NCBI GenBank assembly: GCA_013215295.1
Contig: JABSOZ010000019.1
Span: 1 to 64,000, forward strand
Length of the DNA stretch: 64,000 bases
Source: Colwellia sp.
GTDB taxonomy: Bacteria > Pseudomonadota > Gammaproteobacteria > Enterobacterales > Alteromonadaceae
Direction: 5' to 3'
In this document: positions 11,038 to 64,000 of the stretch, one piece after another
Numbering within the stretch: the first letter of the stretch is position 1
Layout: each line of letters opens with the position of its first letter
Translations under genes and position numbers: made by a program
Notes under the pieces: model-generated
What the model was told of the DNA's origin: nothing
What the model saw: the letters and a program-made list of their open reading frames with translations, nothing else
Database searches by the model: none

Positions 11038-11056
11038 TTTTATATCTACCGGTTAC

Positions 11057-11327: not shown

Positions 11328-11328
11328 T

Positions 11329-11368: not shown

Positions 11369-11399
11369 TAGAAAATAATTTTTCATTGAGGTTTGATTA

Positions 11400-13082: not shown

Positions 13083-13224
13083 CGTTAGGATACTTCATTT
13101 ATCCCTATACCAATTAAAATAATGAATCTATCTTCTAGTAGCTGACTTTTCTTTTACGCATAAACTGGTCGTAAACATTGATATCAGTGTGACCAATATT
13201 GTTAACCTGAGCTCGGGATAAGAA

Positions 13225-13290
13225 AAAAAATAAGGGACACCCATAAACTTTTTTGTCTATTATTAAAGTTTTTGGGTGTCCCATCTATTT
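13225..13290. repeat. REPIN-like minimal hairpin of the RAYT element
   Basis: GGGACACCCATAAAC (13234-13248) is inverted against GTTTTTGGGTGTCCC (13268-13282), with only about 19 bp between. These are the two RAYT ends (see 7622 and 11057) with the gene entirely absent. Both arms changed together relative to the other copies (ACACC/GGTGT instead of ACATC/GATGT), so pairing was kept. Apart from this element, the 306-bp gap 13083-13388 holds nothing I recognise. Confidence 0.65.
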
Positions 13291-13388
13291 TTGCTATTTA
13301 ATTCATCCGTTTTTTTCATCTATGTGCCAATGGTTGTCATTTATTCTTAGGGATCCCATCAGCATCTGTAGCAGAGCCAGCTATCGCG

Positions 13389-15116
13389 CTAATGTAATTG
13401 ACGTCTTCGCTTGCAGTAAAAACATGTTAATACTAACAACAAAAATAGGTCAAAGGAGCCACTGTTGGTGGCATCTTTTTTTGCATTGGGCTTATTGATT
13501 CGGTCGCTATCCAATGGGGCCGGGTTAGTGCCGGTCTCGTTCCAAAAAAAATCGATAGTATCCTGCTTAACTTGCGAGGACAGGACGAGTTGCGATGATG
13601 CCAGATCGTGCCATTTTCTCCCGCATACGGTGACATTTTCAAACGTTATATCAACAATATCGCCATTAAGATCTCCGTCTATTCCACAGTCTTTTATGGT
13701 GACGTTTTTGACGACTACTTTAGATATTTTACCGCCTTGTTTTATCTGAAAATTGATGGGGTCGCCTAACTCACCATTCACCTCGTTTTTGATTATTTCA
13801 TCGACGGTAACATTTTCTATTAAAATGTCATGCCAGTGGCCATTGCCATAATTGTGCTTTAAGTCGATACCGTCTCGGGTTGAGATAATATCTATGTTTC
13901 TAAAGACCACATCATACATGTCTTCTTCACCTTGCATGCCGAAGGTAATGCCCCTAGTAAGGGTATAGATGACATTATTTTCAAACAGAAGATTATAGAC
14001 GTCACCATCTCCGCTGGTGGCTTTGGCACTTAATCCATCATCACCGCCATAATAGAAGCTATTTATCACCTTGCTGTCTCTACAACCCCAGAAATTAAAG
14101 CCTCCGCTGTTTTTCAGGTGCAGGTAATTCATGGTAAGTGAATTACTTATGGTAACGAAGTTACAGCCCTTACTCGGCAGCGATTGCGAGCCGGCTTCCT
14201 GAATCAGCAGGCCGTCAAAATTAATATTATCGCTATCTTCGACGGTTATGCCTCTGATCTTCATGGTTGAGTCACCGATATTATGAATTGGCTCGCCGTT
14301 ATTCAGGCTCAAATGCACCTTAGTGCCCTGGGCATCTACCGTGCCTCGCCCGCTAAAGCTGACGTTTTTAGAATCCAAGATATGGATAAAGTGATCAATT
14401 TTTTTATCGCCGGCTTGTAATGAGGAACTCCACTGATTAAAGTCTTTGCCGTCACCTGTGCCTTTGATAACCGCGCCGGGGGCCATATATACATCAAGGC
14501 CATCTACGTCCTTAAGGATCAACTGTTTGAGCTTATAAATGCCTGCTGGAAAATACAGAGTGTTACCCGATTGCTCGGCGTCAATCATCGCCTGGATTAT
14601 TTTTTGGGTGCTATCTTGGTTGCCTGTAGCATCAACAACATAGTCCATGATATTTTTGACTAAAGGGCTTGCTAGGTTAGGGATGTCTGTTTCCAGGGGC
14701 ACGGCCAGCAGAAAAAGGATCTGCTTGTCATTGATGTAATAAGCCAAATATTCAGGTTTTAAAAGCGTATGCTGCAGTGTTTTACCTGATACAGCTGTCG
14801 AGAAGTTGTGCCTTAAAGGTCTTATTTCATGAGAGTTAATATTTTCATCAGCAGTAACTTTCACCGTTACTGTACCTTCAAAATCAACCCGAGCATAGTG
14901 AGCTTGAATATTGCCATAAATAACGAAATCGGTTACCGGAACGGCTACCGCAATACCATCATCGCCTATCATTTCTAGCTGAAAATCCGAGCTAACCGGG
15001 TAGAACGACGGGACATCAACCACCTTGATTGTTGCACCAAATGCCGAATTTAAATACAAGGTACAGATTAACACCATTATTTTTCCAATAAAGGTATGTA
15101 TTTGTTTGTTCTTCAT
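13389..15116 (-). CDS. Secreted beta-helix glycoside hydrolase (GH28/GH49-like) with C-terminal sorting tail
   Basis: Protein of 575 aa: signal peptide (LNSAFG|AT), an N-terminal beta-sandwich of about 150 residues (VVDVPSFYPVSSDF..., VTVKVTADENINSHEIRPLR) and a right-handed parallel beta-helix (about 175-520) with repeated N-x-x-F/I turns and a GGDDGLSAK block. An N-terminal sandwich before a pectinase-like helix is typical of GH49 dextranase/isopullulanase and some GH28 relatives, so family and substrate stay uncertain. The last 24 residues (SGSFDLFLLLVLTCFYCKRRR...) are a short hydrophobic helix after a small-residue motif and before basic residues, as in GlyGly-CTERM signals processed by rhombosortase. 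The gene is more GC-rich than the AT-rich gene upstream. Confidence 0.75.
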   Translation of the reverse strand: MKNKQIHTFIGKIMVLICTLYLNSAFGATIKVVDVPSFYPVSSDFQLEMIGDDGIAVAVPVTDFVIYGNIQAHYARVDFEGTVTVKVTADENINSHEIRPLRHNFSTAVSGKTLQHTLLKPEYLAYYINDKQILFLLAVPLETDIPNLASPLVKNIMDYVVDATGNQDSTQKIIQAMIDAEQSGNTLYFPAGIYKLKQLILKDVDGLDVYMAPGAVIKGTGDGKDFNQWSSSLQAGDKKIDHFIHILDSKNVSFSGRGTVDAQGTKVHLSLNNGEPIHNIGDSTMKIRGITVEDSDNINFDGLLIQEAGSQSLPSKGCNFVTISNSLTMNYLHLKNSGGFNFWGCRDSKVINSFYYGGDDGLSAKATSGDGDVYNLLFENNVIYTLTRGITFGMQGEEDMYDVVFRNIDIISTRDGIDLKHNYGNGHWHDILIENVTVDEIIKNEVNGELGDPINFQIKQGGKISKVVVKNVTIKDCGIDGDLNGDIVDITFENVTVCGRKWHDLASSQLVLSSQVKQDTIDFFWNETGTNPAPLDSDRINKPNAKKDATNSGSFDLFLLLVLTCFYCKRRRQLH

Positions 15117-37188: not shown

Positions 37189-37264
37189 ATCCTTGTTAAA
37201 GTGTTCTAAATTAAGGTATTTAATCTCAAATAATTAAGTGTATAACAGGAAAGTAATTTACAAT

Positions 37265-38296
37265 ATGGCAAAAGCAAAAAGAGCTCGAATTCAAGACGTT
37301 GCTGAAAAAGCTGGCGTATCAACAATGACTGTCTCAAGAGTTATGAGTAAAGATACTAAAGTTAGCGCGGCAAAAACAGCCTTAGTGATGGAGGCTGTCA
37401 AAGCACTTAATTATCGTCCTAATGTAGCTGCACGGAGATTGGCAGGAAGCCAGTCTTTTCTTATAGGTTTGTTATATTTTGATTTAGATACATCTTACGT
37501 GAGTAAGTTTTTGTTACGCGGCTTAAAAAGCTGCCGAGCTACCGGCCATCATTTAGTCGCAGATGAAGTTGATGACGATATCGAAAAGTCGATAGTTGCG
37601 GTTAAAGACCTTATTGAAGTTACTCAAGTTGATGGCATTATACTATTGCCTCCTGTTTGCGATATTCCTGAAGTATTAACGGCGTTAAAAGAAGCCAATA
37701 TTCCTTTTGTCCGAATAGCACCTGACTCACAGCTTAATTTGTCTCCGTATATTTGCATGGATGATTATCAAGCTGGCTTTGATATAACTGAGTTGCTCAT
37801 TAAACAAGGGCATAGCAAAATAGGCCATATTATTGGTAACCCTAATCAAGGTGCTAGTCGATTACGTTATCAGGGATATTTAGATGCGCTTCGTTCTAAT
37901 CAAATAAATGTACCGCCTGCATATATAGAACAAGGAATGTTTACCTATAATTCGGGTTTAGATGCAGCTAAAAAGATGCTGGCACTTAAAGATAAGCCTA
38001 CAGCAATATTTGCTGCTAATGATGAAATGGCTGCTGCGGTAATTTCAGCCGCTCACATGAATCAGTTAATGGTGCCAGAGCAACTGTCTGTCGCTGGTTT
38101 TGATGATGGTCATTTAGCCACCACGGTAACCCCTCATTTAACTACCATTAGACAGCCTATCCAAGAGATGGCCGCGTTAGCCATTGAACTGTTAGCGTCG
38201 AAAAAATTTGCTGACGCATCAAAAGTGAATAGTCGAGAATTCAGGCATGTGCTTGATTTTGAAATTGTTGAACGAGATTCTAGCCAAGTTATTTAG
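37265..38296 (+). CDS. LacI-family transcriptional regulator of the xylose/xylan locus (paralogue 1)
   Basis: DNA-binding repressor of 343 aa. ATG 37265 is chosen over GTG 37238 because CAGGAAAG lies between them. N-terminal helix-turn-helix (RIQDVAEKAGVSTMTVSRV), hinge helix YRPNVAARRLA and a periplasmic-binding-like effector domain (IILLPPVCDIPEVL, ANDEMAAAVISAAH, VAGFDDGHLATTVTP, TTIRQPIQEMA). It is a close paralogue of the regulator at 56705, with the same recognition-helix residues TVSRV and nearly the same effector pocket, so both probably read the TAGCGCTA operators found throughout 37175-63431. Xylose or a xylo-oligosaccharide is the likely effector (XylR-like of Alteromonadales). It overlaps the end of the convergent epimerase gene by 8 bp. 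Confidence 0.92.
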   Translation: MAKAKRARIQDVAEKAGVSTMTVSRVMSKDTKVSAAKTALVMEAVKALNYRPNVAARRLAGSQSFLIGLLYFDLDTSYVSKFLLRGLKSCRATGHHLVADEVDDDIEKSIVAVKDLIEVTQVDGIILLPPVCDIPEVLTALKEANIPFVRIAPDSQLNLSPYICMDDYQAGFDITELLIKQGHSKIGHIIGNPNQGASRLRYQGYLDALRSNQINVPPAYIEQGMFTYNSGLDAAKKMLALKDKPTAIFAANDEMAAAVISAAHMNQLMVPEQLSVAGFDDGHLATTVTPHLTTIRQPIQEMAALAIELLASKKFADASKVNSREFRHVLDFEIVERDSSQVI

Positions 38297-44124: not shown

Positions 44125-45441
44125 TTACAAGTAACGATTGACGATGTTTTCAAGTAATTCTTGGCGACCAGAAACCTGTTTAGGGTTGATGTTATTTTCA
44201 AGCACCAGCTTCGATAAACTTTCTAAGCTGTGATCACCCGTTAAGATACTTTGACCTAAGTTTTCTTGCCATCCGGCATAACGATTAGCAACAAAATCGG
44301 TTAGCGGAGCATCTTCCATCAGTTTAGCTGCATTGAGTAATGATTTAGCCATCGTATCCATACCACCAACATGTCCAATAAATAAGTCATCACGTTCACA
44401 TGACTGACGGCGTAATTTGGTATCAAAATTAAAGCCACCTGTGGTTAAACCACCTGATTTTAATATTTCGTACATCACTAAAGTACATTCAGCGACATCA
44501 TTAGGAAATTGATCGGTATCCCAACCATTTTGCATGTCACCACGGTTAGCATCAATGCTGCCCATAATGCCTTCAGCACAAGCAGTAGCAATTTCATGAT
44601 GGAAGCTGTGGCCAGCCAAAGTGGCATGGTTAGCTTCAATATTCACTTTTACTTCATCATGAATACCGTGCTTATGTAAAAAACCAGAAACCGTTGCTGT
44701 GTCATAATCATATTGATGTTTAGTTGGCTCTTGCGGCTTAGGTTCAATCAGTAATGTGCCTTTAAAGCCGATTTTATGTTTGTGTTCGATAACCATTTTC
44801 AAGAAACGCGCATATTGCTCACCTTCTTGTTTAAGGTTGGTATTTAATAAAGTGTCGTATCCTTCACGACCACCCCATAACACATAATTTTCACCACCTA
44901 GTCGGTGGGTAACATCCATGGCGTGTTTAACTTGTGCTGCAGCATAGGCAAATAACTCAGGATTTGGGTTAGTTGAACCGCCTGCAGAAAAACGTGCGTT
45001 AGAAAATAAATTTGCCGTTCCCCATAATAACTTAACACCGGTACGCGACATTTCTTGTTCAAAAATATCAGCAATATGGTCTACGTTGGCATGACTCTCT
45101 TTTAAGCTTGCGCCTTCCGGTGCAATGTCGGTATCATGAAAACAAAAGTACGGCACACCGAGTTTTTCAAAGAATTCGAAAGCCACTTTGGCCTTTTGCT
45201 CTGCTAATTCTAGTTGATTGCCAGCCGCTTTGATCCACGGACGGTCAAAAGTGCCAGCACCGAAGATGTCTGAGCCAGTCCAACAAAAGTTATGCCAATA
45301 ACAAGCGGCAAATCTTAGATGCTCTTTCATGGATTTGCCAAGCACCATTTGATTTTCATCATAATAACGAAAGGCCAATGGATTGGTTGAGTTTTCACCT
45401 TCAAATTTAATTTTGCTTACGTTTTCAAAAAACTGACTCAT
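44125..45441 (-). CDS. xylA: Xylose isomerase
   Basis: Enzyme of 438 aa (class II, long type) converting D-xylose to D-xylulose with two divalent metals. ATG 45441 is preceded by AAAGGAAACACC; the longer frame to 45465 lacks a site. Signatures: [13 protein letters not shown] (catalytic His), [38 protein letters not shown] (metal Glu), [17 protein letters not shown] and [21 protein letters not shown] (metal Asp). It follows xylB by 61 bp. Confidence 0.98.
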
Positions 45442-45502
45442 GGTGTTTCCTTTTAAAATATTCAAGTAAATTTATCTGTACTGGTTATTAGTTACGGACA
45501 AG

Positions 45503-46960
45503 TTAAAAGCAGTCTTTTAAGTTGCTATATATTTTTTTGTAGCTTTGATGTTTTTCTTGATAGTAATCCGACATCTTGGCATCGGCTGCTATGGTTGATT
45601 TTATTTTTCCTGGCTGGCAAACTTGTGCCGGAGATTCATCGGTTACCGATAATCTTGCTAATCTAGCTGCACCAAAGGCAGGACCAAGCTCAGCCCCTTC
45701 ACGATAAATCAAGGGTTGTTGTAATACACTGGCAAGAATTTTTCCCCAAAGGCTGCTTCTAGAGCCGCCACCAATCACCGACACTTGTTCGATTTTTGTA
45801 CCTGAGTCGAGTAGAGCTTGTTGGCCATCGGCAAAAGCAAAAGCAACGCCTTCAAGCACGGCCCTACCAAGTTCAGCTTTGCTGGTGTTATGCGTTAGAC
45901 CAAAGAAAACACCTTTAGCATTGGGATTGTTATGTGGAGTACGCTCGCCCGATAGGTAGGGCAAAAAGAGCAAGTCACAAGGTTGGCTGAAATCTTCTTT
46001 CGCGACTTCATCTAGCAACGCTTGTTCATTTGCACAGCCAGTTAGTTTAGTGACCCAAGTCAAACAACTGGCGGCGCTTAAAATTACCGACATCTGGTGC
46101 CAGGTATTTGGCAGGCAATGACAAAAAGTATGTACTGCACCATCAGGATTTGGTTGATAACGCTCATTAGCAACAAAATAAACCCCAGATGTACCTAAGG
46201 ATAAAAAGGCCTCGTTGGGAGTGATCACCCCAATACCTACAGCTCCTGCGGCATTATCGCCACCACCGGCAGCAACAGGCACTCTGTTCATCCCCCAGTT
46301 ATTGGCAACATCGCTGGTTAGAGTACCGGTAATTTCAGACCCTTCAAAAAGTTCAGGCATCTGCTGTTCGGTTAATTCGGTGGCTGCCAACATTTTGGAA
46401 GACCACTGCCTTTTAGCAACATCTAACCAAAGTGTTCCTGAGCTATCTGACATATCCGAGGCGTATTCACCCGTCATCAATAATCTGAGATAGTCTTTTG
46501 GTAATAGCACTTTGTGGATCTTTTTGAATATCGAATTCTCAAATTTATTTACCCAAGCTAACTTAGGCGCAGTAAATCCTGGCATGGCAATATTGCCAGT
46601 AATGTGTCTACTATTTTTAACTTTTTGTTCTATTTCAAGACATTCTGTAAAGCTTCTACCGTCATTCCATAATATAGCTGGGCGAATAACCTGACCTTGT
46701 TTATCTAATAAGGTAGCACCATGCATTTGCCCTGATAAGCCGATGGCTTTAACCGCTGACAATTCAGAACTATGACTTTGCTTTAATTGCGCCATGGCTA
46801 AATTAGTTGCATGCCACCAATCGCTAGGGTTTTGCTCAGACCATAAATCAGCGGGCCGTGAAACGCTTAATGGTGAGGATGCCTGAGCGACAAGTTGTTC
46901 TTGGTCATTCAACAGAACAACTTTTACACTGGATGTGCCTAAATCAATGCCTAAATACAT
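45503..46960 (-). CDS. xylB: Xylulokinase
   Basis: FGGY-family kinase of 485 aa that phosphorylates D-xylulose. ATG 46960 is chosen because it opens with the phosphate-1 motif MYLGIDLGTSSVKVVL. The upstream frame to 47005 overlaps the operator at 46985-46998, so starting there would put the operator in the coding region. Other blocks: GLSGQMHGATLLD, AILWNDGRSFTECLEIE, GGGDNAAGAVGIG, YLSGERTPHNNPNAKGVFFGL and VIGGGSRSSLWGKILASVLQQP. It is the first gene of the operon xylB-xylA-tal-tkt-pgi-galM and the direct target of the LacI operator. Confidence 0.96.
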   Translation of the reverse strand: MYLGIDLGTSSVKVVLLNDQEQLVAQASSPLSVSRPADLWSEQNPSDWWHATNLAMAQLKQSHSSELSAVKAIGLSGQMHGATLLDKQGQVIRPAILWNDGRSFTECLEIEQKVKNSRHITGNIAMPGFTAPKLAWVNKFENSIFKKIHKVLLPKDYLRLLMTGEYASDMSDSSGTLWLDVAKRQWSSKMLAATELTEQQMPELFEGSEITGTLTSDVANNWGMNRVPVAAGGGDNAAGAVGIGVITPNEAFLSLGTSGVYFVANERYQPNPDGAVHTFCHCLPNTWHQMSVILSAASCLTWVTKLTGCANEQALLDEVAKEDFSQPCDLLFLPYLSGERTPHNNPNAKGVFFGLTHNTSKAELGRAVLEGVAFAFADGQQALLDSGTKIEQVSVIGGGSRSSLWGKILASVLQQPLIYREGAELGPAFGAARLARLSVTDESPAQVCQPGKIKSTIAADAKMSDYYQEKHQSYKKIYSNLKDCF

Positions 46961-46984
46961 AAAGAGTCGTTTCTTGTGATTACG

Positions 46985-46998
46985 TGTTAGCGCTAACA
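46985..46998. promoter_or_regulatory. LacI-type operator upstream of xylB
   Basis: TGTTAGCGCTAACA is a perfect 14-bp palindrome 25 bp before the xylB start. It is the best consensus copy of the nine TAGCGCTA sites in this locus. Confidence 0.85.
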
Positions 46999-47218
46999 TT
47001 AGCATTGGTTTTGTTGATTGACAATAGTATTTACGGATAAATATGGTTAAATGATAACTACAAAATTAATGCAGTATGTAAGTAAGTTAGTAAAAACAAG
47101 GTGTTGCCAGTCATTTTGTTGCTGGTAGCTTTGTGGGTTAAGGAAGGGGAGGAGTGAATAGGTGAGTTTAAAAAGCCTTAGAGCTAAATTAATTATCAAA
47201 ACACTCTGGGAAAACTTG

Positions 47219-53541: not shown

Positions 53542-55152
53542 TTACTTATCTATTTCTTGATAATCAAAATATTCAAAATCTGCTTCGAGGTTTTGGCCAC
53601 TAAGATCTTGACAAGTAAGGCCATAAAAAGCACCGGTAAAACAAGGGTGGAAATGTCTTTCAGCATGTTCGACATAGTCATCAGATAAAATGCTACCATC
53701 AAGAATAGGTCCGATTTTTTGCCAATTACCTACAGTCAATGCATAGAAAAATTGTAATTTTTCGCCGTCAAAGTCAGCTTTCAAAAACACTTTATCTATA
53801 CTTGTTATTTCAATGGGTGTTGGATTAGCTTGAGTGGTTTTATGATCATCACAGCTTAAAATGGTCAAATATTTTTTACTTGAGTAGGCACCAAAATCAT
53901 CACCATAAATGTGTAAATAGTGATAATGAACCGTGTTGTAATAGCAGACCAACCCTGCCATTTGCTGAAAATTATCGGGGCTAAATTCTAGGCAAGTTTC
54001 AGCGCTGGTATGGTGGGCTTGAACCCTACGACCGATAAGACTTTGTGCAAAACACGAACTAAGGGACTCTCGACCATAGAGTCTGAGGTAACCAGGACGA
54101 TCGGTCTGATTAACCCAATCCTTGGTTAATGGCACCCTTAATGCCTGAAAGTTGATGTCTATCTCTGTATCGTTAAAGGTTAATCTATTGTTTGCTTGTA
54201 TAAATGGATATTCAGGTAACGCTGGCGCTTCGACTTCTCTACGGGCAGCACGACCACCACAAGCTAGGTATAGCCAATCATCTTCGCGCCATTCAACTTT
54301 TTCAATTGCTGTTTCTCTCCCCGTAATGCACCGGCCGAGTTTGGTTAACGGTCTGCCAGTAAGAAAAACCGCATACCATTCACCACTTTGTGTTTCGACA
54401 AGGTCACCATGCCCCGTTTTTTGCAGGTAGTTGTCGGGATCATTTTTAGCGGTAATGATTGGGTTTTCTGGATGAACCTCATAAGGGCCGGTAATCGACT
54501 TGGCACGCGCTAAGGTCATGCAGTGCTCGTAACTCGTGCCTCCTTCAGCGGTCATTAAGTAGTAATAACCATTGCGCTGGTATATATGCGGCCCTTCGGT
54601 GCGTCCATGCTCAGTACCTGCAAAAATATGATGGATTTTACCGACTAATTGTTTGGACTCTTTATCAAATTCTTGTAGAACCACTCCACCAAAAAATTTG
54701 CCATTGCGGTGATCCATCAGCATATTTAGAAAGTAAGACTTACCATCATCATCATGAAATAGTGATGCATCAAAGCCACTGGCATTTAGGAACGTGGGTT
54801 CAGACCAAGGTCCATTGATATTTTCGGCGGTAACTAAGAAATTAGGGGTATCTTTCCAATCACCATTAAAGCTTTTGACATTAGCATAAAGCAGGTAAAA
54901 AATTCCGTCATGGTGACTTATGCAGGGCGCCCAAACTCCACAAGAATCAGGAACACCTCTCATATCTAATTGTGAAACCCTGTTTAAAGGTTGACCAATG
55001 AGTTGCCAGTTTTTCAAGTCTTTTGAATGATGAATTTGACAACCCGGAAACCATTCAAAGGTAGAGGTAACAATATAATAATCGTCCTCAACTCGAAGGA
55101 TACTAGGGTCAGGATTAAACCCAGTCAAAATAGGATTAATGATTTTACTCAT
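53542..55152 (-). CDS. GH43 family beta-xylosidase-like enzyme
   Basis: Cytoplasmic five-bladed beta-propeller enzyme of 536 aa without signal peptide. Catalytic residues: base Asp15 (GFNPDPSIL), pKa-modulating Asp128 (SGFDASLFHDDDGKSYF) and acid Glu186 (HGRTEGPHI). The C-terminal half is the extra beta-sandwich of the GH43_11 (XynB-like) type (RQ...SLIGRRVQAHHTSAETCLEFSP). Such enzymes release xylose from short xylo-oligosaccharides, here probably those produced by the GH26 enzyme encoded 30 bp upstream. The product enters XylA/XylB directly. Confidence 0.93.
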   Translation of the reverse strand: MSKIINPILTGFNPDPSILRVEDDYYIVTSTFEWFPGCQIHHSKDLKNWQLIGQPLNRVSQLDMRGVPDSCGVWAPCISHHDGIFYLLYANVKSFNGDWKDTPNFLVTAENINGPWSEPTFLNASGFDASLFHDDDGKSYFLNMLMDHRNGKFFGGVVLQEFDKESKQLVGKIHHIFAGTEHGRTEGPHIYQRNGYYYLMTAEGGTSYEHCMTLARAKSITGPYEVHPENPIITAKNDPDNYLQKTGHGDLVETQSGEWYAVFLTGRPLTKLGRCITGRETAIEKVEWREDDWLYLACGGRAARREVEAPALPEYPFIQANNRLTFNDTEIDINFQALRVPLTKDWVNQTDRPGYLRLYGRESLSSCFAQSLIGRRVQAHHTSAETCLEFSPDNFQQMAGLVCYYNTVHYHYLHIYGDDFGAYSSKKYLTILSCDDHKTTQANPTPIEITSIDKVFLKADFDGEKLQFFYALTVGNWQKIGPILDGSILSDDYVEHAERHFHPCFTGAFYGLTCQDLSGQNLEADFEYFDYQEIDK

Positions 55153-55182: not shown

Positions 55183-56373
55183 TCAGTAATCACTGGTTTG
55201 AATCCAGGTGTTACTATTAGTAATTTGCTCTAACCAACGCGCTTTTATCTCATCATTTGCTTGAATGCGACTATCGCCCCAATTCCCTTGCGAACAACCA
55301 GAGCTTCCCGCGGCAATTCCTTCAGTGCATTGCCACTTGCCTTGAGAATCCCAATGGGTATTGATATAGGCGACGGCTTTTATGACATCGTTATTGGCAT
55401 AAATAAAGTCGAAATAAGGTTGGTACCATGTTTGCCAAATTTGCTCTGCAGTAACAGGCTCTGGCTTGTTTTCTTGAATAACGCTATTGGTTAATTCGCT
55501 GATGCGAAATCCTTGCGGAGCTGATTCAGCAATCATCACCGGCTTTTGGTGCGCTTTCGCAAACACTAACATGGCTTCTTGTACTGCTTGAGGAGTACTC
55601 GGAGGCACATAGTTCCACTGTGATAGGTTACGATAGAAAACTGACATACCTATCCAGTCAACGTATTCATCACCTGGGTACCATGTATTTAGGTGACCGT
55701 CCAAGCTAGTGTCATAAATAGGGTTGCCGTAACTATCCGGCCATGAAGCTGATTGCCACACGGTAGCAATGTTGTCGGCATTTTGTTTGGTGATTGCCTT
55801 CGCTATCCTTTGAAAAGCCAGTTTGTAATCTTTCGGAGTATAACAATTCCAAGGGCCGTCAAACTCGTAACCTATTCGTAAGAATACCTTTCGTGGTGCT
55901 AATGATTTGAAATGCTTGACCATCACGTCAATGGTCTCGTTATATAATCCATTGGCAATATTAGCTTGATGATTTACTTGGTTACAGTTATCAAAAGCTA
56001 AACCGACTGCAATTGATGCATTAGGTGATTCAGCAAGAGTTTTAGTAAAATCCACTGAGCCTGATTGCCAAGAGCTAGGAAGAAAAATTGCTTTCAATGT
56101 TTCACTTGGTTGAGCACTTTTTACCTGGCTGTATAGCGTAACTCCTTCGATATTATCTTCAGGTACTGCCGCAATATAATTGCTGATGGTATCTGAATCT
56201 TGGCCAATAAAGAGCAATATTTTGTTATCAGGAGGCGTGAACTTTCCGGAAATATTGTTAGTTTCTATTTTCGAACTTGTGCTCTTTTGTGGTTGGTTTT
56301 GTTGTCTTTCACAAGCGGTTATCGATATAAAAAAAGATAATACGGTAAAAATAGCAAAGGTATTTTTCATCAT
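55183..56373 (-). CDS. GH26 family lipoprotein, beta-1,3-xylanase-like
   Basis: Lipoprotein of 396 aa (lipobox SITAC, Cys21). The (beta/alpha)8 barrel starts KILLFIGQDSDTISNYI. Acid/base Glu170 lies in LRIGYEFDGPWNCY and nucleophile Glu283 in KPVMIAESAPQG. The GYEFDG rather than WHEMNG form fits the beta-1,3-xylanase branch of GH26, not mannanases. The neighbours (GH43, xylose pathway) support xylan over mannan. The lipid anchor suggests an outer-membrane enzyme cutting imported or surface chains. It begins a four-gene run (GH26, GH43, PhyH, clan-A glycosidase) and is preceded by two operators. Confidence 0.85.
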   Translation of the reverse strand: MMKNTFAIFTVLSFFISITACERQQNQPQKSTSSKIETNNISGKFTPPDNKILLFIGQDSDTISNYIAAVPEDNIEGVTLYSQVKSAQPSETLKAIFLPSSWQSGSVDFTKTLAESPNASIAVGLAFDNCNQVNHQANIANGLYNETIDVMVKHFKSLAPRKVFLRIGYEFDGPWNCYTPKDYKLAFQRIAKAITKQNADNIATVWQSASWPDSYGNPIYDTSLDGHLNTWYPGDEYVDWIGMSVFYRNLSQWNYVPPSTPQAVQEAMLVFAKAHQKPVMIAESAPQGFRISELTNSVIQENKPEPVTAEQIWQTWYQPYFDFIYANNDVIKAVAYINTHWDSQGKWQCTEGIAAGSSGCSQGNWGDSRIQANDEIKARWLEQITNSNTWIQTSDY

Positions 56374-56704: not shown

Positions 56705-57739
56705 TCAACTTAATTCCGCACTGGATTCACGAAGAATAATTTCAAAATCCAAAACATGGCGTAAGTCTGATTTTTTAGTTTTAGTCGGATCATCAAATTT
56801 TCCAGAGACCAGCAATTCAACAGCTACTTTGGCCATTTCTTGAATAGGTTGCCGTACTGTTGATATATGAGGCCAAACGGTACTCGCTAGTTCAGTATCA
56901 TCAAAGCCGACAATCGATAGTTCAGTTGGTACATGGATATTATTCATATGGGCAGCAGAAATCGCCGCCGCGGCCATATCATCATTACTGGCAAAAATAG
57001 CACTAGGCCGATTTTCTAAGGATAACAAACTTATGGCAGCACTCAATCCTGACTTATAGGTAAAAAATCCTTGCTCAATATATTCGGGAGGAACAGAAAT
57101 TTTATTTGACCGCAATGCGTCAAGAAAACCCTGATAACGTAATCGACTTGCTCCAACATCTGGATGACCTATGATATGGGCTATATTAATATGTCCCTGA
57201 TGAATCAGTTGCTCTGTAATTTCAAAAGCCGCCTGATAGTCATCCATGCAAACATAGGGTGAAACGTTTAATTGGGAATCAGGAGAAACCCGAACAAATG
57301 GAATATTAGCAGTAATTAATTTATCTAGAACTTCAGGAATATCACAAACAGGAGGTAATAGTATCAAACCATCAACCTGTGTAATATTAATTAGCTCTTC
57401 GACAGAACCCAGCGTTTTTGCTAGGTCTTTATCGGCTTCATCAACAACGAGATGATATCCGTTGGCTCGACAAAGTTTAAGACTACCTAATAGAAATTGG
57501 CTTACATAGGAAGTACTAGGGTTATCATATAACAAGCCTAGAAAAAACGATTTACTACTTGCCAAACGACGTGCTGAGACATTAGGCCGGTAACTAAGTT
57601 CTTTTACCGCTGCTTGTACTTTCGCTCGTGTTTTATCACTCACCATCCCATTCTGATTAAGTACTCGTGATACTGTCATCATAGAAACACCGGAGTGTTT
57701 TGCCACGTCTTGTAAACGAGTTTTTTTGTCTTTACTCAT
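56705..57739 (-). CDS. LacI-family transcriptional regulator (paralogue 2)
   Basis: Repressor of 344 aa: helix-turn-helix RLQDVAKHSGVSMMTVSRVL, hinge YRPNVSARRLA and effector domain with ILLPPVCDIPEVLDKL, FASNDDMAAAAISAAH and IVGFDDTELASTVWP. It is colinear with and very similar to the regulator at 37265, and the blocks ANIPFVR.SPDSQLN.SPY.CMDDYQA and GASRLRYQG.LDALRSN are shared. An operator-like site lies 96 bp upstream (57835). Together the two regulators frame the locus at 37-58 kb. Either they co-regulate, or one has a modified effector such as xylobiose versus xylose. Confidence 0.93.
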   Translation of the reverse strand: MSKDKKTRLQDVAKHSGVSMMTVSRVLNQNGMVSDKTRAKVQAAVKELSYRPNVSARRLASSKSFFLGLLYDNPSTSYVSQFLLGSLKLCRANGYHLVVDEADKDLAKTLGSVEELINITQVDGLILLPPVCDIPEVLDKLITANIPFVRVSPDSQLNVSPYVCMDDYQAAFEITEQLIHQGHINIAHIIGHPDVGASRLRYQGFLDALRSNKISVPPEYIEQGFFTYKSGLSAAISLLSLENRPSAIFASNDDMAAAAISAAHMNNIHVPTELSIVGFDDTELASTVWPHISTVRQPIQEMAKVAVELLVSGKFDDPTKTKKSDLRHVLDFEIILRESSAELS

Positions 57740-58055: not shown

Positions 58056-58069
58056 TGTTAGCGTTAACT
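58056..58069. promoter_or_regulatory. LacI-type operator before the TonB receptor gene
   Basis: TGTTAGCGTTAACT, 301 bp upstream of the receptor start. The long distance implies a long leader between promoter and gene. Confidence 0.65.
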
Positions 58070-58369: not shown

Positions 58370-61252
58370 ATGAAATGTAGAAGATTTACTAAGACATATT
58401 TAGCTAAGAGCTTATCTCTTATTCTGGCTGCTGGTATAGTATCACCGGCCTTTGCGGAAGAAAGTAGTCAATCGGAAGATGATATCGAAGTTATTGAAGT
58501 AACCGGTATTCGAGCCAGTATGATCAAGGCAATGGATATCAAACGTGAAGCTAATGGAGTCGTTGACGCCATTTCTGCTGAAGATATTGGTAAATTTCCT
58601 GATACAAACCTAGCCGAATCATTACAACGTATATCCGGTGTATCCATTGATCGCTCAAATAACGAAGGTAGTAAAGTCACGGTTCGAGGTTTTGGCCCAA
58701 ACTTTAACCTAGTCACTTTAAACGGCCGTGAAATGCCAACAGCTGAGTTAGCAGGAACTTCAGCACCACAGTCACGCTCGTATGATTTTGCTAATATAGC
58801 CTCTGAAAGTATCAGTGGAGTAGAAATTCATAAAACGGGTAAAGCCACTAACCCGAGTGGTGGGATAGGCGCTACTATTAATATACTTACCGCAAAACCA
58901 CTTGATAGCTCAGGTATGCGCGCAACCTTAGGTGTAAAAGCGGTAATGGATACCACCAACGAAAATGGTGATGATGTAACTCCAGAATTATCAGGTTTGT
59001 ACAGCAACACCTTTGCAGATGATACCTTTGGGATTTTGGTTTCAGGTTCATTCCAAAAACGTGATAGTTTAGAGCAAAATGCAGAGGTTTCAGGCTGGGA
59101 TGAAGCAAGTAGCTCAGTATTCTTGGGAAATAATGTTAGCAATAATAGCTTAAACCCTGATGGAAATGTTTGGATCCCTCAAAACTATAAATACGATGTA
59201 GGTGATATTGAACGTGAACGTACTAATGGTTTAGTGGTATTACAATATAAGCCTATTGAAACACTGACAGCAACACTAGATTATACCTATGCAAAAAATG
59301 AAACCGTTTCTAACCGTAATCATTTTGGTGTTTGGTTCACGGGTGGTGGGGCGATAAATTCTGCGACTATTAATGAAAATGGTACAGTAGAGCAAATCGA
59401 AGAAAATGGTGGTTCTTATGACTTTTTCACTTATTTAAATAAAGCTGAAAGTGAAAATAAATCATTAGGTTTTAATCTTGAGTGGCAAGCAACAGATAAC
59501 TTAACCTTGAATTTTGATTTTCATGACTCTTCCGCAGAATCTTTTGGTGGTGATACCGGTAATAATACTTTCTTTATTATGTCAGCCCCAATTGACTCTA
59601 AGACATTTGATATAAGCCAAGGCACGGATATTCCAACACTAGATGTTAACTTTATTGACATCACTACCGATATTGCACCGAATCAAATCGTGGCCAACCA
59701 AGCGTTTGCCAACGAAGGAGGCTCAAGCAGCGACGTAACACAATCAAGGTTCGACGGTACGTGGGTGAATGAAGATGATGGTGGTTTAGCCAGTATTGAA
59801 TTTGGTGTTGGTTATGTTGAAAGAGAATCCCACGCTACATATGCCAAGACACAATATGTATTTACGCCTCAAAATGATACCTTCTTTGATAGCTCTATTT
59901 TTACTAAAACAGGTACAACAGGACTATTTACAGAATTTACTGGTGGTGTAATGCCATTTTTCTATGATTATGATGCCACTGAAGTCTTTAATCTAGCTCA
60001 AGCTGCCTTCCCTGATGGTATTCTTCCAGGAGCACTAGATCAAGACCATACCGTTATCGAAAAAACCAGCAGTGCTTATGTGCAATTTAACATCGATTCT
60101 GAATTCAACGGTATGGAAGTTAATATTGTTGCCGGTATGCGCTACGAACAAACTGACGTTGAAGCGAGTAGTTTAGCCGAAACTGCGTTATCAATTGAAT
60201 GGCAAAATCCAGTAGAATTTAAAACTAACTTTACATCAGATGGTACTAACTTTACTGATGTAGAAGCCGATTACTCATTATTTTTACCTAGCTTAGATGT
60301 GAGTATCGAAGTCGTCGAAGATGTATTAGCACGTTTTTCATACAGTAAAACGGTTACCCGTAATAGTTTACAAAATATGCGTGGCACTACAACTATCACA
60401 AGCACACCAAAATTAGGCAGCAGAACAGCATCGCGTGGTTCTCCTGAGTTATTACCGTATTCTTCGAATAATATTGATTTATCATTGGAATATTATTATG
60501 GCGAAGCTAGTTATGTTTCTCTTGGTTATTACAGTAAAGACGTTGATAACTTTCTGGTCACTTCTGAAGTTCAAGAAGAGCTATTAGACTTACGAGATCC
60601 GGCCAATGGCCAGCGTTCAGATGAAGCTATAGCACAGCTGAACGCTGAAGGTACCGACCCCTCACCAACTAATGTATGGGAACGTATCTTATTAAATATG
60701 GGGCAACCTACTGATGGCACTGTAACTATCCTTGCTGACGAAACCGATAGACCTATTGTTTGGACAACAACGGCATCGGTAAATGGTGAATCAGTAGCGA
60801 TAGAAGGTTTTGAGTTTGCTATTCAACATACCTTTGGTGACTCAGGCTTTGGTGCTTTATTTAACATGACGACTGTCACAGGTGATGTTTCGTTTGATAA
60901 TGCCACTGTTGGTACACAATTTACCTTACCAGGCTTAAGTGATTCAGCTAACCTTGTCGCTTTTTATGAAAAAGACGGTATTCAAGCACGTATCGCTTAC
61001 AACTGGCGTGATGACTTTTTATCAGCTATTGGTCAGTCAGAAGGTGAAGCAAATGGCCCACAATATACAGAAGCTTATGGTCAAGTTGATATTAGTGCGA
61101 GTTATAATGTGAATGATGATTTAACTGTGTTTGTTGAGGGCTTAAACATAACTGAAGAAACTCAACGAATTCATGGTCGCTACTCAGAGCAATTACTTCA
61201 TGCTCGTCAGTATGGTGCACGTTACAACATAGGCATGCGTTATAACTTCTAA
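58370..61252 (+). CDS. TonB-dependent receptor of the xylan locus
   Basis: Outer-membrane receptor of 960 aa, preceded by the ribosome site AAGGGAC. Signal peptide (SPAFA|EE), TonB-box/plug start IEVIEVTGIRASMIKAMDIKR, DIGKFPDTNLAESLQRISGVSI, VTVRGFGPNFNLVTLNGREMP and a barrel ending GARYNIGMRYNF. It fits the proteobacterial TIGR01782-like class. It differs clearly from the pectin-locus pair in its plug (FPDTNLAESLQRISGV). Located before the repeat lipoprotein and GH26 genes and under the xylose operator type, it probably imports xylo-oligosaccharides released at the surface. Confidence 0.95.
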   Translation: MKCRRFTKTYLAKSLSLILAAGIVSPAFAEESSQSEDDIEVIEVTGIRASMIKAMDIKREANGVVDAISAEDIGKFPDTNLAESLQRISGVSIDRSNNEGSKVTVRGFGPNFNLVTLNGREMPTAELAGTSAPQSRSYDFANIASESISGVEIHKTGKATNPSGGIGATINILTAKPLDSSGMRATLGVKAVMDTTNENGDDVTPELSGLYSNTFADDTFGILVSGSFQKRDSLEQNAEVSGWDEASSSVFLGNNVSNNSLNPDGNVWIPQNYKYDVGDIERERTNGLVVLQYKPIETLTATLDYTYAKNETVSNRNHFGVWFTGGGAINSATINENGTVEQIEENGGSYDFFTYLNKAESENKSLGFNLEWQATDNLTLNFDFHDSSAESFGGDTGNNTFFIMSAPIDSKTFDISQGTDIPTLDVNFIDITTDIAPNQIVANQAFANEGGSSSDVTQSRFDGTWVNEDDGGLASIEFGVGYVERESHATYAKTQYVFTPQNDTFFDSSIFTKTGTTGLFTEFTGGVMPFFYDYDATEVFNLAQAAFPDGILPGALDQDHTVIEKTSSAYVQFNIDSEFNGMEVNIVAGMRYEQTDVEASSLAETALSIEWQNPVEFKTNFTSDGTNFTDVEADYSLFLPSLDVSIEVVEDVLARFSYSKTVTRNSLQNMRGTTTITSTPKLGSRTASRGSPELLPYSSNNIDLSLEYYYGEASYVSLGYYSKDVDNFLVTSEVQEELLDLRDPANGQRSDEAIAQLNAEGTDPSPTNVWERILLNMGQPTDGTVTILADETDRPIVWTTTASVNGESVAIEGFEFAIQHTFGDSGFGALFNMTTVTGDVSFDNATVGTQFTLPGLSDSANLVAFYEKDGIQARIAYNWRDDFLSAIGQSEGEANGPQYTEAYGQVDISASYNVNDDLTVFVEGLNITEETQRIHGRYSEQLLHARQYGARYNIGMRYNF

Positions 61253-61309
61253 GCTTATTTTTTAACAAAAATAACGAAGAAGTCTTTAACATAAATAAGG
61301 AAAAAAATA

Positions 61310-63148
61310 ATGAATATAATAAATAAATTCAATCCACTAAATATAATATATATGGGTATGACGGCCCTAGTGTTAAGTGCCTGTGGTGGTAGTGATTCAA
61401 CACCAACACTAGAAACGCCTCCAGATCATATCCCAACAACGACAGTTATTTTGGTACAAGATGCTGAAGATGAGGATGATAAAGGTTACTTAATTGCAGG
61501 GAATACCTCTGCAGATAGAGAAGGTTTAACGCTTTATACCTTTGCTAGTGATACTCAAGGTGTTAGTACTTGTTATGAAGAATGTGCGCAAGTTTGGCTC
61601 CCTTATACAGTTCCAACTGAAGAGCATGCAGTTAATATTACTTCTGGTGCAATATCAGTAGCAGCCCGTATAGATGGTTCTTTACAAGTTACCGTTGTTC
61701 CTGCACTTGGTGAAGAACCAAAGCCACTCTATTTTTATATTAACGATATCGTGGAAGGAGAGATTTTAGGTGCAGACATTGAAGGCTGGAGAGTATCAAG
61801 CTTTAATCTAGACAAAGTACCGGATGTATTGGTTGCAAGTCTTAATTTTTCAGTTGACGGTTCTATTACAGAATTCTTCTCTAACGGTGAGGCTGAATGT
61901 TGTGATCAAGCAGGTGCGGTTATTGATGCTAACGGCCTTCTTGGTGGTTTATTCGGTGTAGGTGACGGTTTTAGTGTAACTGTTCCAGCTGCTGCTGATG
62001 GTGTTTCTAAAATGGGCTTTAACTATTTCCGTGGCGCTGATACTGATGGCTCCATGACAGTGTCAATTGACGGCGATACTGTCGGTCAGTTTGTTCTTGT
62101 TCCTAACTCTGCAGATTGGGCATCATTAAGTGAAAATGCTGCACCTACGGCGTTTTTGGAGTTAGATACTCCTTTAGCAGCGGGCGACGTTATTACAGTA
62201 ATGGTGGACAGTCAGTTCTCTGCGGGTAATGGTGAATCATTTGGTTTCTATAAACCAGGTGCAGCAACTATTACTTTGGCAACATTAGAAGTAGAAGATG
62301 GTATTTCCATTACAGAATTCTTCTCTAACGGTGAGGCAGAGTGCTGTGATCAAGTAGGTGCGGTTATCGATGAAAATGGCCTATTAGGCGGGCTATTTGG
62401 AGTAGGTGACGGGGTTGCTATTACCGTTCCTCCAGAGGCGGCTGGTGCTAACCAATTTGGTTTCACATACTTCCGTGGTGCTGATACAGATGGTTCTATG
62501 ACAGTATCTGTCGATGGTATCCCTGTAGGTAAGTTGGTACTTGTTCCTAACTCTGCAGATTGGGCATCATTAAGTGAAAATGCAGCTCCTACCGCGTTTA
62601 TTGATTTAGATACGCCTTTGGTTGCTGGACAAATTATTACGGTAATGGTTGATAGTCAATTCTCAGCAGGTAATGGTGATGCGTTTGTCTTCAATCTGAC
62701 ATCTAAACCTGCTCCAGTTCTAACTGATATTTTAGTTTTAGCTGACGAAGGTGTGGTTACTGAGTTTTTCTCTAATGGTGAAGCGGAATGTTGTGACCAG
62801 GTAGGTGCAGTAATCGATGATAACGGATTAATGGGTGGATTATTTGGTGTCGGTGATGGTTTCAGTGTAATGGTTCCTGCTGATTCAGACGGTGCAATAC
62901 GTTTTGGTTTTAGTTACTTCCGTGGCGCCGATACAGATGGCTCAATGACAGTACTTGTAGATGGTGTTGCAGCAGGCACATTAATTATTGCTCCTAATTC
63001 TGCAGATTGGGCTTCATTGTCTGAAAATGCTGCTCCCACTGCATTTATGAACTTAAGTACTCCTTTAATTGCGGGACAAATAGTTGCTGTAATGGTTGAT
63101 AGCCAGTTCTCTGCAGGTAACGGTGTTTCAGTAAGTTTCTATAAATAG
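61310..63148 (+). CDS. Lipoprotein with PF03640-like domain and three near-identical putative carbohydrate-binding repeats
   Basis: Protein of 612 aa. Lipobox LSAC, Cys25. Residues about 45-168 form a PF03640-like 'secreted repeat' domain (LTLYTFASDTQGVSTCYEEC with Cys88 and Cys92, and YINDIVEGEILG). Residues about 185-612 hold three repeats with a period of 148-149, each starting ITEFFSNGEAECCDQ (CC at 197-198, 345-346, 494-495), then GGLFGVGDG, YFRGADTDGSMTV, PNSADWASLSENAAPTAF and MVDSQFSAGNG. Each repeat has only those two adjacent cysteines. I suspect a beta-1,3-xylan-binding module related to CBM31 because GH26 beta-1,3-xylanase genes flank it. With the TonB receptor 57 bp upstream it may be a surface capture protein, in place of a SusD. 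Confidence 0.8.
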   Translation: MNIINKFNPLNIIYMGMTALVLSACGGSDSTPTLETPPDHIPTTTVILVQDAEDEDDKGYLIAGNTSADREGLTLYTFASDTQGVSTCYEECAQVWLPYTVPTEEHAVNITSGAISVAARIDGSLQVTVVPALGEEPKPLYFYINDIVEGEILGADIEGWRVSSFNLDKVPDVLVASLNFSVDGSITEFFSNGEAECCDQAGAVIDANGLLGGLFGVGDGFSVTVPAAADGVSKMGFNYFRGADTDGSMTVSIDGDTVGQFVLVPNSADWASLSENAAPTAFLELDTPLAAGDVITVMVDSQFSAGNGESFGFYKPGAATITLATLEVEDGISITEFFSNGEAECCDQVGAVIDENGLLGGLFGVGDGVAITVPPEAAGANQFGFTYFRGADTDGSMTVSVDGIPVGKLVLVPNSADWASLSENAAPTAFIDLDTPLVAGQIITVMVDSQFSAGNGDAFVFNLTSKPAPVLTDILVLADEGVVTEFFSNGEAECCDQVGAVIDDNGLMGGLFGVGDGFSVMVPADSDGAIRFGFSYFRGADTDGSMTVLVDGVAAGTLIIAPNSADWASLSENAAPTAFMNLSTPLIAGQIVAVMVDSQFSAGNGVSVSFYK

Positions 63149-63170
63149 ATAATTAACTTAACTGACGAAG

Positions 63171-63197
63171 AATGCCACTTAACAAGTGGCATTTTTA
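63171..63197 (+). terminator. Terminator of the receptor-lipoprotein operon
   Basis: AATGCCACTT (63171-63180) pairs with AAGTGGCATT (63184-63193), followed by TTTATAT. Confidence 0.88.
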
Positions 63198-63417: not shown

Positions 63418-63431
63418 TGATAGCGCTAACA
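63418..63431. promoter_or_regulatory. LacI-type operator before the second GH26 gene
   Basis: TGATAGCGCTAACA, 168 bp before the GH26 start; one mismatch to the dyad. It ties this gene to the xylose regulon. Confidence 0.75.
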
Positions 63432-63598: not shown

Positions 63599-64000
63599 AT
63601 GATAAATGCTTCACGAGTAAAAGGTAAAATATCACTATTAGGGACGTTGAGTTTAGCCCTGGTAATTGTGACCGCACCTTTTTTATCAATTAAGACTAAC
63701 GCTGCAGACTTAGCACCAGAACAAGGTGTCTTGCTCAGCATTGGACAGGATGTTGATAGTATTAATGCTTATCATCAAAGTATCAGCGTTGTTGCGGGTG
63801 GCGTTACTAATTATCTTGGTATCAATTCGCTTGGCGGACTGACATCAAATGCAGAATCAGGTGCAGGTCGTAATAATATTGCAGAACTTGTAACCTTATA
63901 CCCCGATTCTACGCTTGTCGTCGGAGTATCTATGAACGGTGTTATCGACGATGTTGCTGCCGGTCATTACGATAATAATATTGATATTTTACTTAAGACC
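63599..64000 (+). CDS. GH26 family enzyme, beta-1,3-xylanase-like (3' end outside window)
   Basis: The frame is open from ATG 63599 to the window end (134 codons); AAGG lies 8 bases before the start. A signal peptide (LSLALVIVTAPFLSIKTNAA) without lipobox is followed by GVLLSIGQDVDSINAYHQSI, which aligns with KILLFIGQDSDTISNYIAAV of the GH26 lipoprotein at 55183, and later STLVVGVSMNGVIDDVAAGHYDNNIDIL aligns with its SIAVGLAFDN...IANGLYNETIDVM. It is therefore a second GH26, apparently freely secreted where the first is lipid-anchored. The catalytic part lies beyond the window. Confidence 0.85.
   Translation, partial: MINASRVKGKISLLGTLSLALVIVTAPFLSIKTNAADLAPEQGVLLSIGQDVDSINAYHQSISVVAGGVTNYLGINSLGGLTSNAESGAGRNNIAELVTLYPDSTLVVGVSMNGVIDDVAAGHYDNNIDILLKT

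What the first reader, a model, noticed from the sequence alone, without database searches (positions are those of the whole stretch)
61310..63148. Triple-repeat lipoprotein with conserved vicinal cysteine pair beside a TonB receptor
The three 148-residue repeats share nearly every residue. Each contains exactly two cysteines, adjacent to each other (CC in GEAECCDQ). A vicinal disulfide or a CC-dependent ligand or metal site would be unusual for a surface binding module. The fusion to a PF03640-like domain is also unusual. Given the GH26/xylose context it could be the beta-1,3-xylan capture protein of a SusD-less uptake system.
Basis: partly seen in the sequence, partly recalled or inferred. 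Interest (0 to 1): 0.75.

Follow-up and report, generated by a model that had tools for sequence, protein, structure and literature searches.

The report
Xylan-catching lipoprotein with twin-cysteine modules
A marine Colwellia-type bacterium makes a lipoprotein whose three sugar-binding-like modules each carry one pair of adjacent cysteines; it sits between an outer-membrane importer and an algal xylan-cutting enzyme and probably catches that xylan, a plausible new variant of a known kind of sugar-binding module.

Summary
In detail: ORF 61310-63148 (612 aa) encodes a lipoprotein with a PF03640 domain and three ~130-aa modules, each with one CC pair and no other cysteine. The modules are 74-75% identical, not "nearly every residue". 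The family was found in 4 of 196 sampled family genomes, own included, with 3, 3, 5 and 5 modules; CC is kept in 16 of 16 modules. In all four the gene lies between a TonB receptor and a GH26 enzyme, here a match to beta-1,3-xylanase XYL4 (E 5e-138). The module matches no Pfam CBM and is not CBM31, but model and profile place it near CBM6/CBM35. Its one invariant tryptophan falls on the CBM6 Trp92 ligand residue; the Tyr34 position is Leu/Ile in 10 of 16 modules. Best reading: a surface capture lipoprotein of a beta-1,3-xylan system without SusD_RagB, carrying a candidate new CBM family. A vicinal disulfide as part of the sugar platform is possible but untested; it may instead brace a loop or pack modules together. 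The CC and Trp loops are poorly modelled and no binding was measured.

The parts
58370..61252 (+). TonB-dependent receptor, 960 aa, first gene of the unit
   Evidence: Plug and TonB_dep_Rec_b-barrel over cut-off; TIGR01782 630.6 bits, cut-off 310
61310..63148 (+). CC-module lipoprotein, 612 aa
   Evidence: 95% identical ortholog in L004
61310..61384 (+). Signal peptide with lipobox LSAC; lipidated Cys25 (codon 61382-61384)
   Evidence: read from the translation, no signal-peptide program was run; Gly at +2 suggests outer membrane (recalled rule)
61511..61603 (+). PF03640 match (residues 68-98) inside what looks like a larger PF03640/COG4315-like domain, with Cys88 and Cys92
   Evidence: 37.6 bits; COG4315 likeness recalled
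61862..62251 (+). CC module 1 (residues 185-314)
62306..62695 (+). CC module 2 (residues 333-462)
62753..63142 (+). CC module 3 (residues 482-611)
61898..61903 (+). Cys197-Cys198 pair of module 1
62342..62347 (+). Cys345-Cys346 pair of module 2
62789..62794 (+). Cys494-Cys495 pair of module 3
62117..62119 (+). Trp270, module position 87, invariant in 16 of 16 modules, at the CBM6 Trp92 position (the same residue in modules 2 and 3 is Trp418 and Trp567)
   Evidence: residue roles from PMC10284105 (passages)
63168..63196 (+). Terminator-like hairpin with a U-rich 3' arm, after the receptor-lipoprotein unit
   Evidence: -15.6 kcal/mol, z -5.8; not among the sites of the pattern scan, whose 5 terminator-like sites are about the chance number (4.1)
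63599..64000 (+). Start of GH26 beta-1,3-xylanase (654 aa, runs on past the window; L005:8600-10564)
   Evidence: 2ddx/XYL4 E 5.1e-138
58056..58069 (+). Operator-like palindrome upstream of the TonB receptor
   Evidence: 2 mismatches
63418..63431 (+). Operator-like palindrome upstream of the GH26 gene
   Evidence: 1 mismatch
55183..56373 (-). Second GH26 enzyme, lipoprotein-like
   Evidence: 2ddx E 3.5e-43; PF02156 22.8 bits, cut-off 20.2
53542..55152 (-). GH43 beta-xylosidase-type enzyme
   Evidence: PF04616 336.7 bits, PF17851 199.1 bits
56705..57739 (-). LacI-family regulator
44125..47005 (-). Xylose isomerase and xylulokinase genes
   Evidence: TIGR02630 and TIGR01312 over cut-off

Best explanation
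The protein is most likely an outer-membrane capture lipoprotein that works with the TonB receptor encoded just before it. Its three tandem beta-sandwich modules, distantly related to CBM6/CBM35, would hold beta-1,3-xylan or its oligosaccharides near the XYL4-type GH26 enzyme and the receptor, the job that SusD-type proteins do in Bacteroidota. In each module the adjacent cysteines most likely form a vicinal disulfide in the first loop, perhaps near the invariant tryptophan that matches the CBM6 ligand-stacking Trp92. Shown: gene order, module anatomy, conservation, relationship by profile and model, no SusD_RagB match. Inferred: surface exposure, xylan binding, disulfide formation, and the place of the disulfide near the cleft. 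Sub-estimates: glycan-binding lipoprotein 0.7; ligand beta-1,3-xylan 0.6; disulfide touches the ligand 0.3 (lowered from 0.35 after reading of vicinal disulfides at a lectin's subunit interface).
For: 4 of 4 genomes with the module have receptor, CC lipoprotein and GH26 in that order. The GH26 matches XYL4 at E 5.1e-138; XYL4 is strict for continuous beta-1,3 links (PMC12706835, passages). Of 5 family genomes with such a GH26 at E < 1e-100, 4 carry the lipoprotein. Palindrome TGTTAGCGCTAACA: 12 matches against 3.3 expected, 8 of them beside genes of the xylose/xylan set. Model pLDDT 76, pTM 0.74; of 21 Foldseek PDB matches at E <= 0.001, 9 are titled CBM6 or CBM35. Profile against PDB sequences: 7 of 13 rows, the top 6 among them, are CBM35-bearing proteins, best E 0.0029 (three of the seven are titled CBM35, the other four are recalled). 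Profile hit on a GH26-linked CBM6 domain, E 6.8e-4 for one genome, 21.3 bits against at most 8.4 in shuffles (2000 made, 1824 scored). Beta-1,3-xylanases commonly carry CBM6 and CBM31 (PMC9638140, passages). CC and Trp87 16 of 16. No SusD_RagB match.
Against: No Pfam CBM model matches the modules. TM-scores to CBM6 are 0.55-0.61 among the matches at E <= 0.001 and 0.41-0.58 further down the list, where unrelated proteins (Cry1Aa, haemagglutinin, C1q-like) also appear. The best PDB profile hit is above E 0.001, and four nanobodies are in the same list. The CBM6 hit has an E-value for one genome, and 394 were searched. Model residues 84-92 (Trp87 loop) are below pLDDT 50 and block 11-20 (CC loop) averages 57, so their geometry is unknown. 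The Tyr34 position is Leu or Ile in 10 of 16 modules, and position 124, compared with Asn120, varies. The palindrome was chosen from sites in this window, so its excess here is inflated. G033, with an XYL4-type GH26, lacks the lipoprotein and has CBM31. The full-length model failed (pLDDT 39). No binding data.
Confidence: 0.55

Rival explanations
1. The modules bind xylan, but the CC pair is only a structural lock: a vicinal disulfide that rigidifies the long first loop and does not touch the sugar.
For: One Cys pair per module, so it is the only disulfide available inside a module; it sits in a long loop between strands 3-7 and 28-32. PMC12102755 (passages) names structure stabilisation among the roles of vicinal disulfides.
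Against: 7 of the 17 other invariant columns (N9, E13, G33, G35, D36, N83, W87) lie in loops that by strand order seem to share that end. The other 10 do not, and the loops are poorly modelled, so this is weak.
Confidence: 0.33
2. The CC pairs pack module against module, or lipoprotein against receptor, as hydrophobic patches, not against sugar.
For: In the sponge galectin CchG-1 pairs of vicinal disulfides pack at the dimer-of-dimers interface (PMC4557014 and PMC6272496, passages). The modules here are tandem and similar.
Against: CC is kept in every module whatever the number (3 or 5) or position, also before the PF03640 domain, where neighbours differ.
Confidence: 0.12
3. The lipoprotein is a glycan binder for another polymer of the same locus, such as mixed-linkage beta-1,3/1,4-xylan.
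For: The second GH26 (55183-56373) matches XYL4 only at E 3.5e-43 and the mixed-linkage enzyme AlXyn26A at 3.5e-23; mixed-linkage xylanases also cut pure beta-1,3 chains (PMC12706835, passages).
Against: The adjacent enzyme is far closer to the strictly beta-1,3 XYL4 (5.1e-138 against 1.9e-22 for AlXyn26A).
Confidence: 0.2
4. The CC pairs are reduced thiols or a redox or metal site that switches binding or senses redox state.
For: Vicinal disulfides can provide the switch for a conformational change (PMC12102755, passages).
Against: The protein is exported to an oxidising compartment (recalled); no His and no further Cys is among the invariant columns.
Confidence: 0.08
5. The lipoprotein is a scaffold or adhesin that binds the receptor or another protein, not a glycan.
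For: Against G048, receptor and lipoprotein are 66% and 42% identical while the GH26 is 82%; the same order does not hold for G040, where receptor and GH26 are alike (63% and 63%) and the lipoprotein is 40%.
Against: CBM-like fold and profile matches; variable module number (3 or 5) fits avidity for a polymer.
Confidence: 0.12

Closest known systems
CBM6 (PF03422) and CBM35 modules
   Same: Predicted beta-sandwich; Foldseek hits 1uxx, 1o8p, 1gmm, 2w47; profile matches over module positions ~24-131; Trp at the Trp92 ligand position.
   Different: No Pfam hit; invariant CC pair in the first loop; aliphatic residue at the Tyr34 position in 10 of 16 modules; found on a stand-alone lipoprotein, not on an enzyme.
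CBM31 (PF11606, module of XYL4-type enzymes)
   Same: Same enzyme context (XYL4 itself is GH26-CBM31-CBM31 in PMC9638140, passages) and possibly the same ligand.
   Different: No profile similarity; no CBM31 in this genome, while G033 and G040 have it. The cysteines of the two G033 CBM31 modules are Cys-x4-Cys, not adjacent.
SusD and surface glycan-binding proteins of Bacteroidota
   Same: Lipoprotein encoded next to a TonB-dependent receptor in a polysaccharide locus.
   Different: No SusD_RagB match in the genome; beta-sandwich modules instead of the helical SusD fold (fold recalled).
Vibrio sp. EA2 xul locus (PMC12125979; abstract, passages and section 22)
   Same: GH26 beta-1,3-xylanases, xylosidases, xylA and xylB for beta-1,3-xylan.
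   Different: EA2 imports oligomers mainly by an ABC transporter; this locus has a TonB receptor with the CC lipoprotein. The paper's Figure 7 legend lists TonB transporters among parts of other loci, so a receptor in such a locus is not new; its main text has 0 occurrences of 'Colwellia', 'lipoprotein' and 'CBM'.
Vicinal disulfides of arabinofuranosidase 1wd4 and of sponge galectin CchG-1 (passages)
   Same: Precedents for Cys-Cys disulfides in sugar-handling proteins: one packs on the undecorated face of a pentose ring, the other at a subunit interface.
   Different: Neither is described as a CBM6-like module; contact with sugar or protein is not shown here.

Membership tests
CBM31 | Match to AlcCBM31 profile PF11606 | tested here: not met
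   0 matches in this genome; rings in G033 and G040; the 14 control genomes do not ring; hhalign probability 0.7%
CBM6 | Match to PF03422 over its cut-off | tested here: not met
   Scan of 11 modules at E <= 10 gave no CBM family; the genome-wide CBM6 scan at E <= 0.01 does not list the modules
CBM6 | Beta-sandwich jelly-roll fold | tested here: met
   Model pTM 0.74; 1o8p TM 0.61, 1uxx TM 0.61/0.65, 1gmm TM 0.55; moderate scores, loops uncertain
CBM6 | Cleft A aromatic pair (Tyr34 and Trp92) plus Asn120 | tested here: inconclusive
   Trp92 position Trp in 16 of 16; Tyr34 position L/I in 10 and F/Y in 6 of 16; position 124, compared with Asn120, varies; residue roles from PMC10284105 (passages)
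SusD / SGBP | SusD_RagB domain | tested here: not met
   (PF07980 only), control positive in Bacteroides ihuae
SusD / SGBP | Lipoprotein gene adjacent to a TonB-dependent receptor in a glycan locus | tested here: met
SusD / SGBP | Glycan binding at the cell surface | not testable with these tools
   needs protein
Vicinal-disulfide sugar platform | Two adjacent cysteines with no other partner in the domain | tested here: met
   16 of 16 modules
Vicinal-disulfide sugar platform | Disulfide formed and in contact with ligand | not testable with these tools
   model coordinates were not in the Python box; CC loop pLDDT ~57
PF03640 (Lipoprotein_15) | Match over gathering score | tested here: met
   37.6 bits, cut-off 24.4

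The most novel reading that the evidence does not exclude
The CC modules form a new CBM family specific for beta-1,3-xylan, in which the sugar is held between one invariant tryptophan and a vicinal disulfide that replaces the second aromatic wall of the CBM6 cleft, on a capture lipoprotein that stands in for SusD in Colwelliaceae.
Probability: 0.24. Interest if true: 0.72.

Novelty: new variant of a known kind. Interest (0 to 1): 0.52.

Why it matters
Beta-1,3-xylan is called an overlooked pool of marine carbon, and the worked-out Vibrio route imports its oligomers mainly through an ABC transporter (PMC12125979, abstract). A TonB-linked capture lipoprotein that is not SusD would give a concrete partner for the receptor-type loci that the same paper only lists. 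A CBM whose platform is a disulfide would be a new binding chemistry for carbohydrate modules, as far as I could find, and a direct test case: one residue pair, three similar modules, and a reductant control.

Tried and rejected
Single-sequence PDB searches gave only weak hits: ribosomal S5 for the whole protein; five S5 entries and a nanobody for module 1; treated as chance. Weak Pfam and NCBIfam hits inside the repeats (YhfH, GNAT-phage-like, acyltransferase and others) are below cut-off and dropped. Hit G087 of the family scan (E 7.8e-4, three stops inside) was dropped, which leaves 4 of 196 genomes, not 5. The one locus from genome contigs, L004, has the same length and proteins as G101:C12, so they are counted once. 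Profile scans of order, class and phylum found 2 of 394, 1 of 369 and 1 of 398 genomes, own genome included; the extra one is the CBM6 domain. These samples evidently did not draw G040, G048 or G101, so they bound the spread only roughly. Viral contigs: 9 pattern matches, none a relative. Plasmids: 91 records; the 15 listed match query residues 3-206, mainly the PF03640 part; 76 were not listed. PHROGs gave nothing convincing. The viral structure library gave no match at E <= 0.001. The full-length model was unusable. hhalign of 11 modules against the mixed CBM6 set A4 was weak (18%); of 16 modules against the one clear CBM6 37%, E 3.6e-4. The CBM6-like tails of the Colwellia GH26 enzymes score only 1.4-2.8 bits with the module profile, so the modules are not simply copies of the neighbour's own domain. 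The promoter scan found fewer sites than chance (9 against 21.6). No Rfam family or tRNA in the window. In the module-pair dN/dS, pairs 1-3 and 2-3 were out of register and are not used.

Full report
What is there. The ORF at 61310-63148 encodes a 612-aa lipoprotein with lipobox LSAC, a PF03640-type domain (37.6 bits, cut-off 24.4) and three modules of about 130 residues joined by linkers of about 18. The modules are 74-75% identical pairwise. Each has exactly two cysteines, side by side; the only others in the protein are the lipid cysteine and Cys88/Cys92 of the PF03640-type domain.

Relatives. A scan of 196 genomes of the family with module 1 gave 5 with a match at E <= 0.001. One is a short piece with three stops and was dropped, so 4 remain: the window's own genome, a second genome of the genus and two of other genera. 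A profile scan of the 6 genomes of the genus finds the same 2. The named member is a Colwellia MAG, the same contig as the second genome's. Profile scans of 394, 369 and 398 genomes of order, class and phylum found no other member; these are samples that evidently did not draw the other three known carriers. The lipoproteins have 3, 3, 5 and 5 modules. In the five-module forms one module precedes the PF03640 domain.

Conservation. Over 16 modules, down to 38% identity to module 1, 19 columns are invariant, among them N9, E13, C14, C15, N83 and W87. W87 is the only invariant tryptophan. A tree splits the modules into groups of six and ten with 100/100 support; many inner forks are open. Position 31 is aliphatic (L/I) in the ten and aromatic (F/Y) in the six. 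The ortholog pair shows purifying selection, dN 0.022 and dS 0.101.

Context. In all four loci the order is TonB receptor, CC lipoprotein, GH26. Gaps are 57, 57, 172 and 43 bp before the lipoprotein and 450, 447, 402 and 419 bp after it. In the window a strong hairpin follows the lipoprotein gene at 63168-63196. The GH26 matches XYL4 (2ddx) at E 5.1e-138. XYL4 cuts only continuous beta-1,3 xylose chains (PMC12706835, passages). The window also holds a second GH26, a GH43, two sugar transporters, xylose isomerase, xylulokinase, transketolase and transaldolase. Of 196 family genomes 11 have a GH26 hit at E <= 1e-20; 5 are at E < 1e-100 and 4 of these 5 carry the lipoprotein. The fifth, G033, has a GH26 with CBM31 domains. 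None of the other six carries the module at E <= 0.001 in the scan.

Regulation. The palindrome TGTTAGCGCTAACA occurs 12 times with up to 3 mismatches against 3.3 expected, and no shuffle of 100 reaches 12. I chose it from sites seen in this window, so the excess here is inflated; three relatives, whose loci are homologous and so not independent, show 6 against 0.7, 10 against 0.8 and 9 against 1.1. By position, 8 of the 12 lie beside genes of this set: 37175 before a LacI gene, 46985 and 47219 by xylulokinase and a transporter, 56409 and 56653 between the second GH26 and LacI, 57835 and 58056 between LacI and the receptor, and 63418 before the GH26. The other four (13425, 30540, 32514, 59134) do not fit. 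That a LacI protein binds it is inferred.

Fold. AlphaFold on six modules (window and L004) gave pLDDT 76.3 and pTM 0.74, nearly all beta. Of 21 PDB matches at E <= 0.001, 9 are titled CBM6 or CBM35; the other 12 are larger enzymes (GH87, a glucanotransferase, a GH43), whose matching part I did not see. TM-scores to CBM6 in that set are 0.55-0.61, moderate; further down unrelated beta proteins join the list. Independently, the 16-module profile against PDB sequences lists 13 rows at E <= 10. Seven are CBM35-bearing proteins: 2w47, 2w1w and 2vzp are titled so, the other four by recall. They include the top six; the best has E 0.0029. The other six rows are four nanobodies and two other proteins. 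In the order scan the only foreign hit, E 6.8e-4 for one genome of 394 searched, is in a GH26 protein, on a stretch inside its CBM6 domain (67 bits). That domain scores 21.3 bits with the module profile against at most 8.4 for its shuffles, and hhalign aligns 101 columns at E 3.6e-4, probability 37%. No Pfam CBM model matches the 11 modules scanned (of 16).

Binding site. The alignment puts module position 31 opposite the Trp of VVGW and W87 opposite the Trp of KSW in that CBM6. The same CBM6 aligns with CtXyn5A. Counting by hand along the printed chain with an offset of 33, these are its Trp424 and Phe478, which correspond to Tyr34 and Trp92, the two aromatic ligand residues of a CBM6 (PMC10284105, passages). 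So one ligand aromatic is kept in 16 of 16 modules, and the other is aliphatic in 10 of 16, including all three here. That paper also notes that Glu20 of another CBM6 touches the ligand; by its number it lies before the Tyr34 position, roughly in the loop where CC sits. Strand order in the model suggests that the CC loop, the 33-36 turn and the W87 loop share one end, but block 11-20 averages pLDDT 57 and 84-92 is below 50, so this is weak.

Mechanism. Most likely the lipoprotein holds beta-1,3-xylan at the surface beside the enzyme and receptor. The genome has no SusD_RagB match and no CBM31 match, so other parts must do these jobs. G040, however, has both CBM31 proteins, on another contig, and the CC lipoprotein, so it does not simply replace CBM31. 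The cysteines have no partner but each other within a module, so a vicinal disulfide is the simplest state; links between modules are not excluded. Vicinal disulfides can pack on the undecorated side of a sugar ring, as in 1wd4 (PMC12102755, passages), and xylose, lacking C6, has little decoration (recalled). But in a sponge galectin they pack at a subunit interface (PMC4557014 and PMC6272496, passages).

Literature. I searched for vicinal disulfides with carbohydrate-binding and lectin terms, beta-1,3-xylan, CBM6 cleft residues, Colwellia polysaccharide loci, surface glycan-binding proteins and PF03640. None of the 10 papers listed of 519 holds the words vicinal disulfide, which does not prove absence. 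I saw passages only of PMC12102755, PMC9638140, PMC10284105, PMC12706835, PMC4557014 and PMC6272496; passages and section 22 of PMC12125979; and a word search without any hit in PMC8517272. All others were listings. None of what I saw describes this module. The 2017 review on vicinal disulfides (PMC5500257) is not held, and the library lacks most subscription journals.

Noticed in passing
window 46985, 47219, 56409, 56653, 57835, 58056, 63418: Shared palindrome TGTTAGCGCTAACA marks a possible LacI-type regulon covering xylose and xylan genes; the same excess is seen in three relatives.
   Followed up: partly
window 37238-38296 and 56705-57739: Two LacI regulators, 64% identical over 343 aligned residues, lie at the two sides of the xylose genes.
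   Followed up: no
L005:8600-10564: The GH26 carries Big_7, a sub-threshold CBM6-like domain (19.8 bits, cut-off 28.9) and a Gly/Ser-rich C-terminal hydrophobic tail like a GlyGly-CTERM anchor (recalled label; NCBIfam gave no hit).
   Followed up: partly
window 58370-63148 and L021, L022: The lipoprotein diverges fastest of the three genes: 42% to G048 and 40% to G040, against 66% and 63% for the receptor and 82% and 63% for the GH26.
   Followed up: partly
L051 (G040:C89) 7862-13721: G040 has, on another contig, a second GH26-GH43-like locus with two large ORFs that hold four CBM31 domains.
   Followed up: no
L005:11252-12811: Tryptophan-halogenase-family protein near the locus (PF04820); similar-looking ORFs lie near the G048 and G040 loci.
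   Followed up: no
window 61511-61603: The PF03640 domain of unknown function with a Cys-x3-Cys pair is kept in the lipoproteins; in two of four a CC module precedes it.
   Followed up: no
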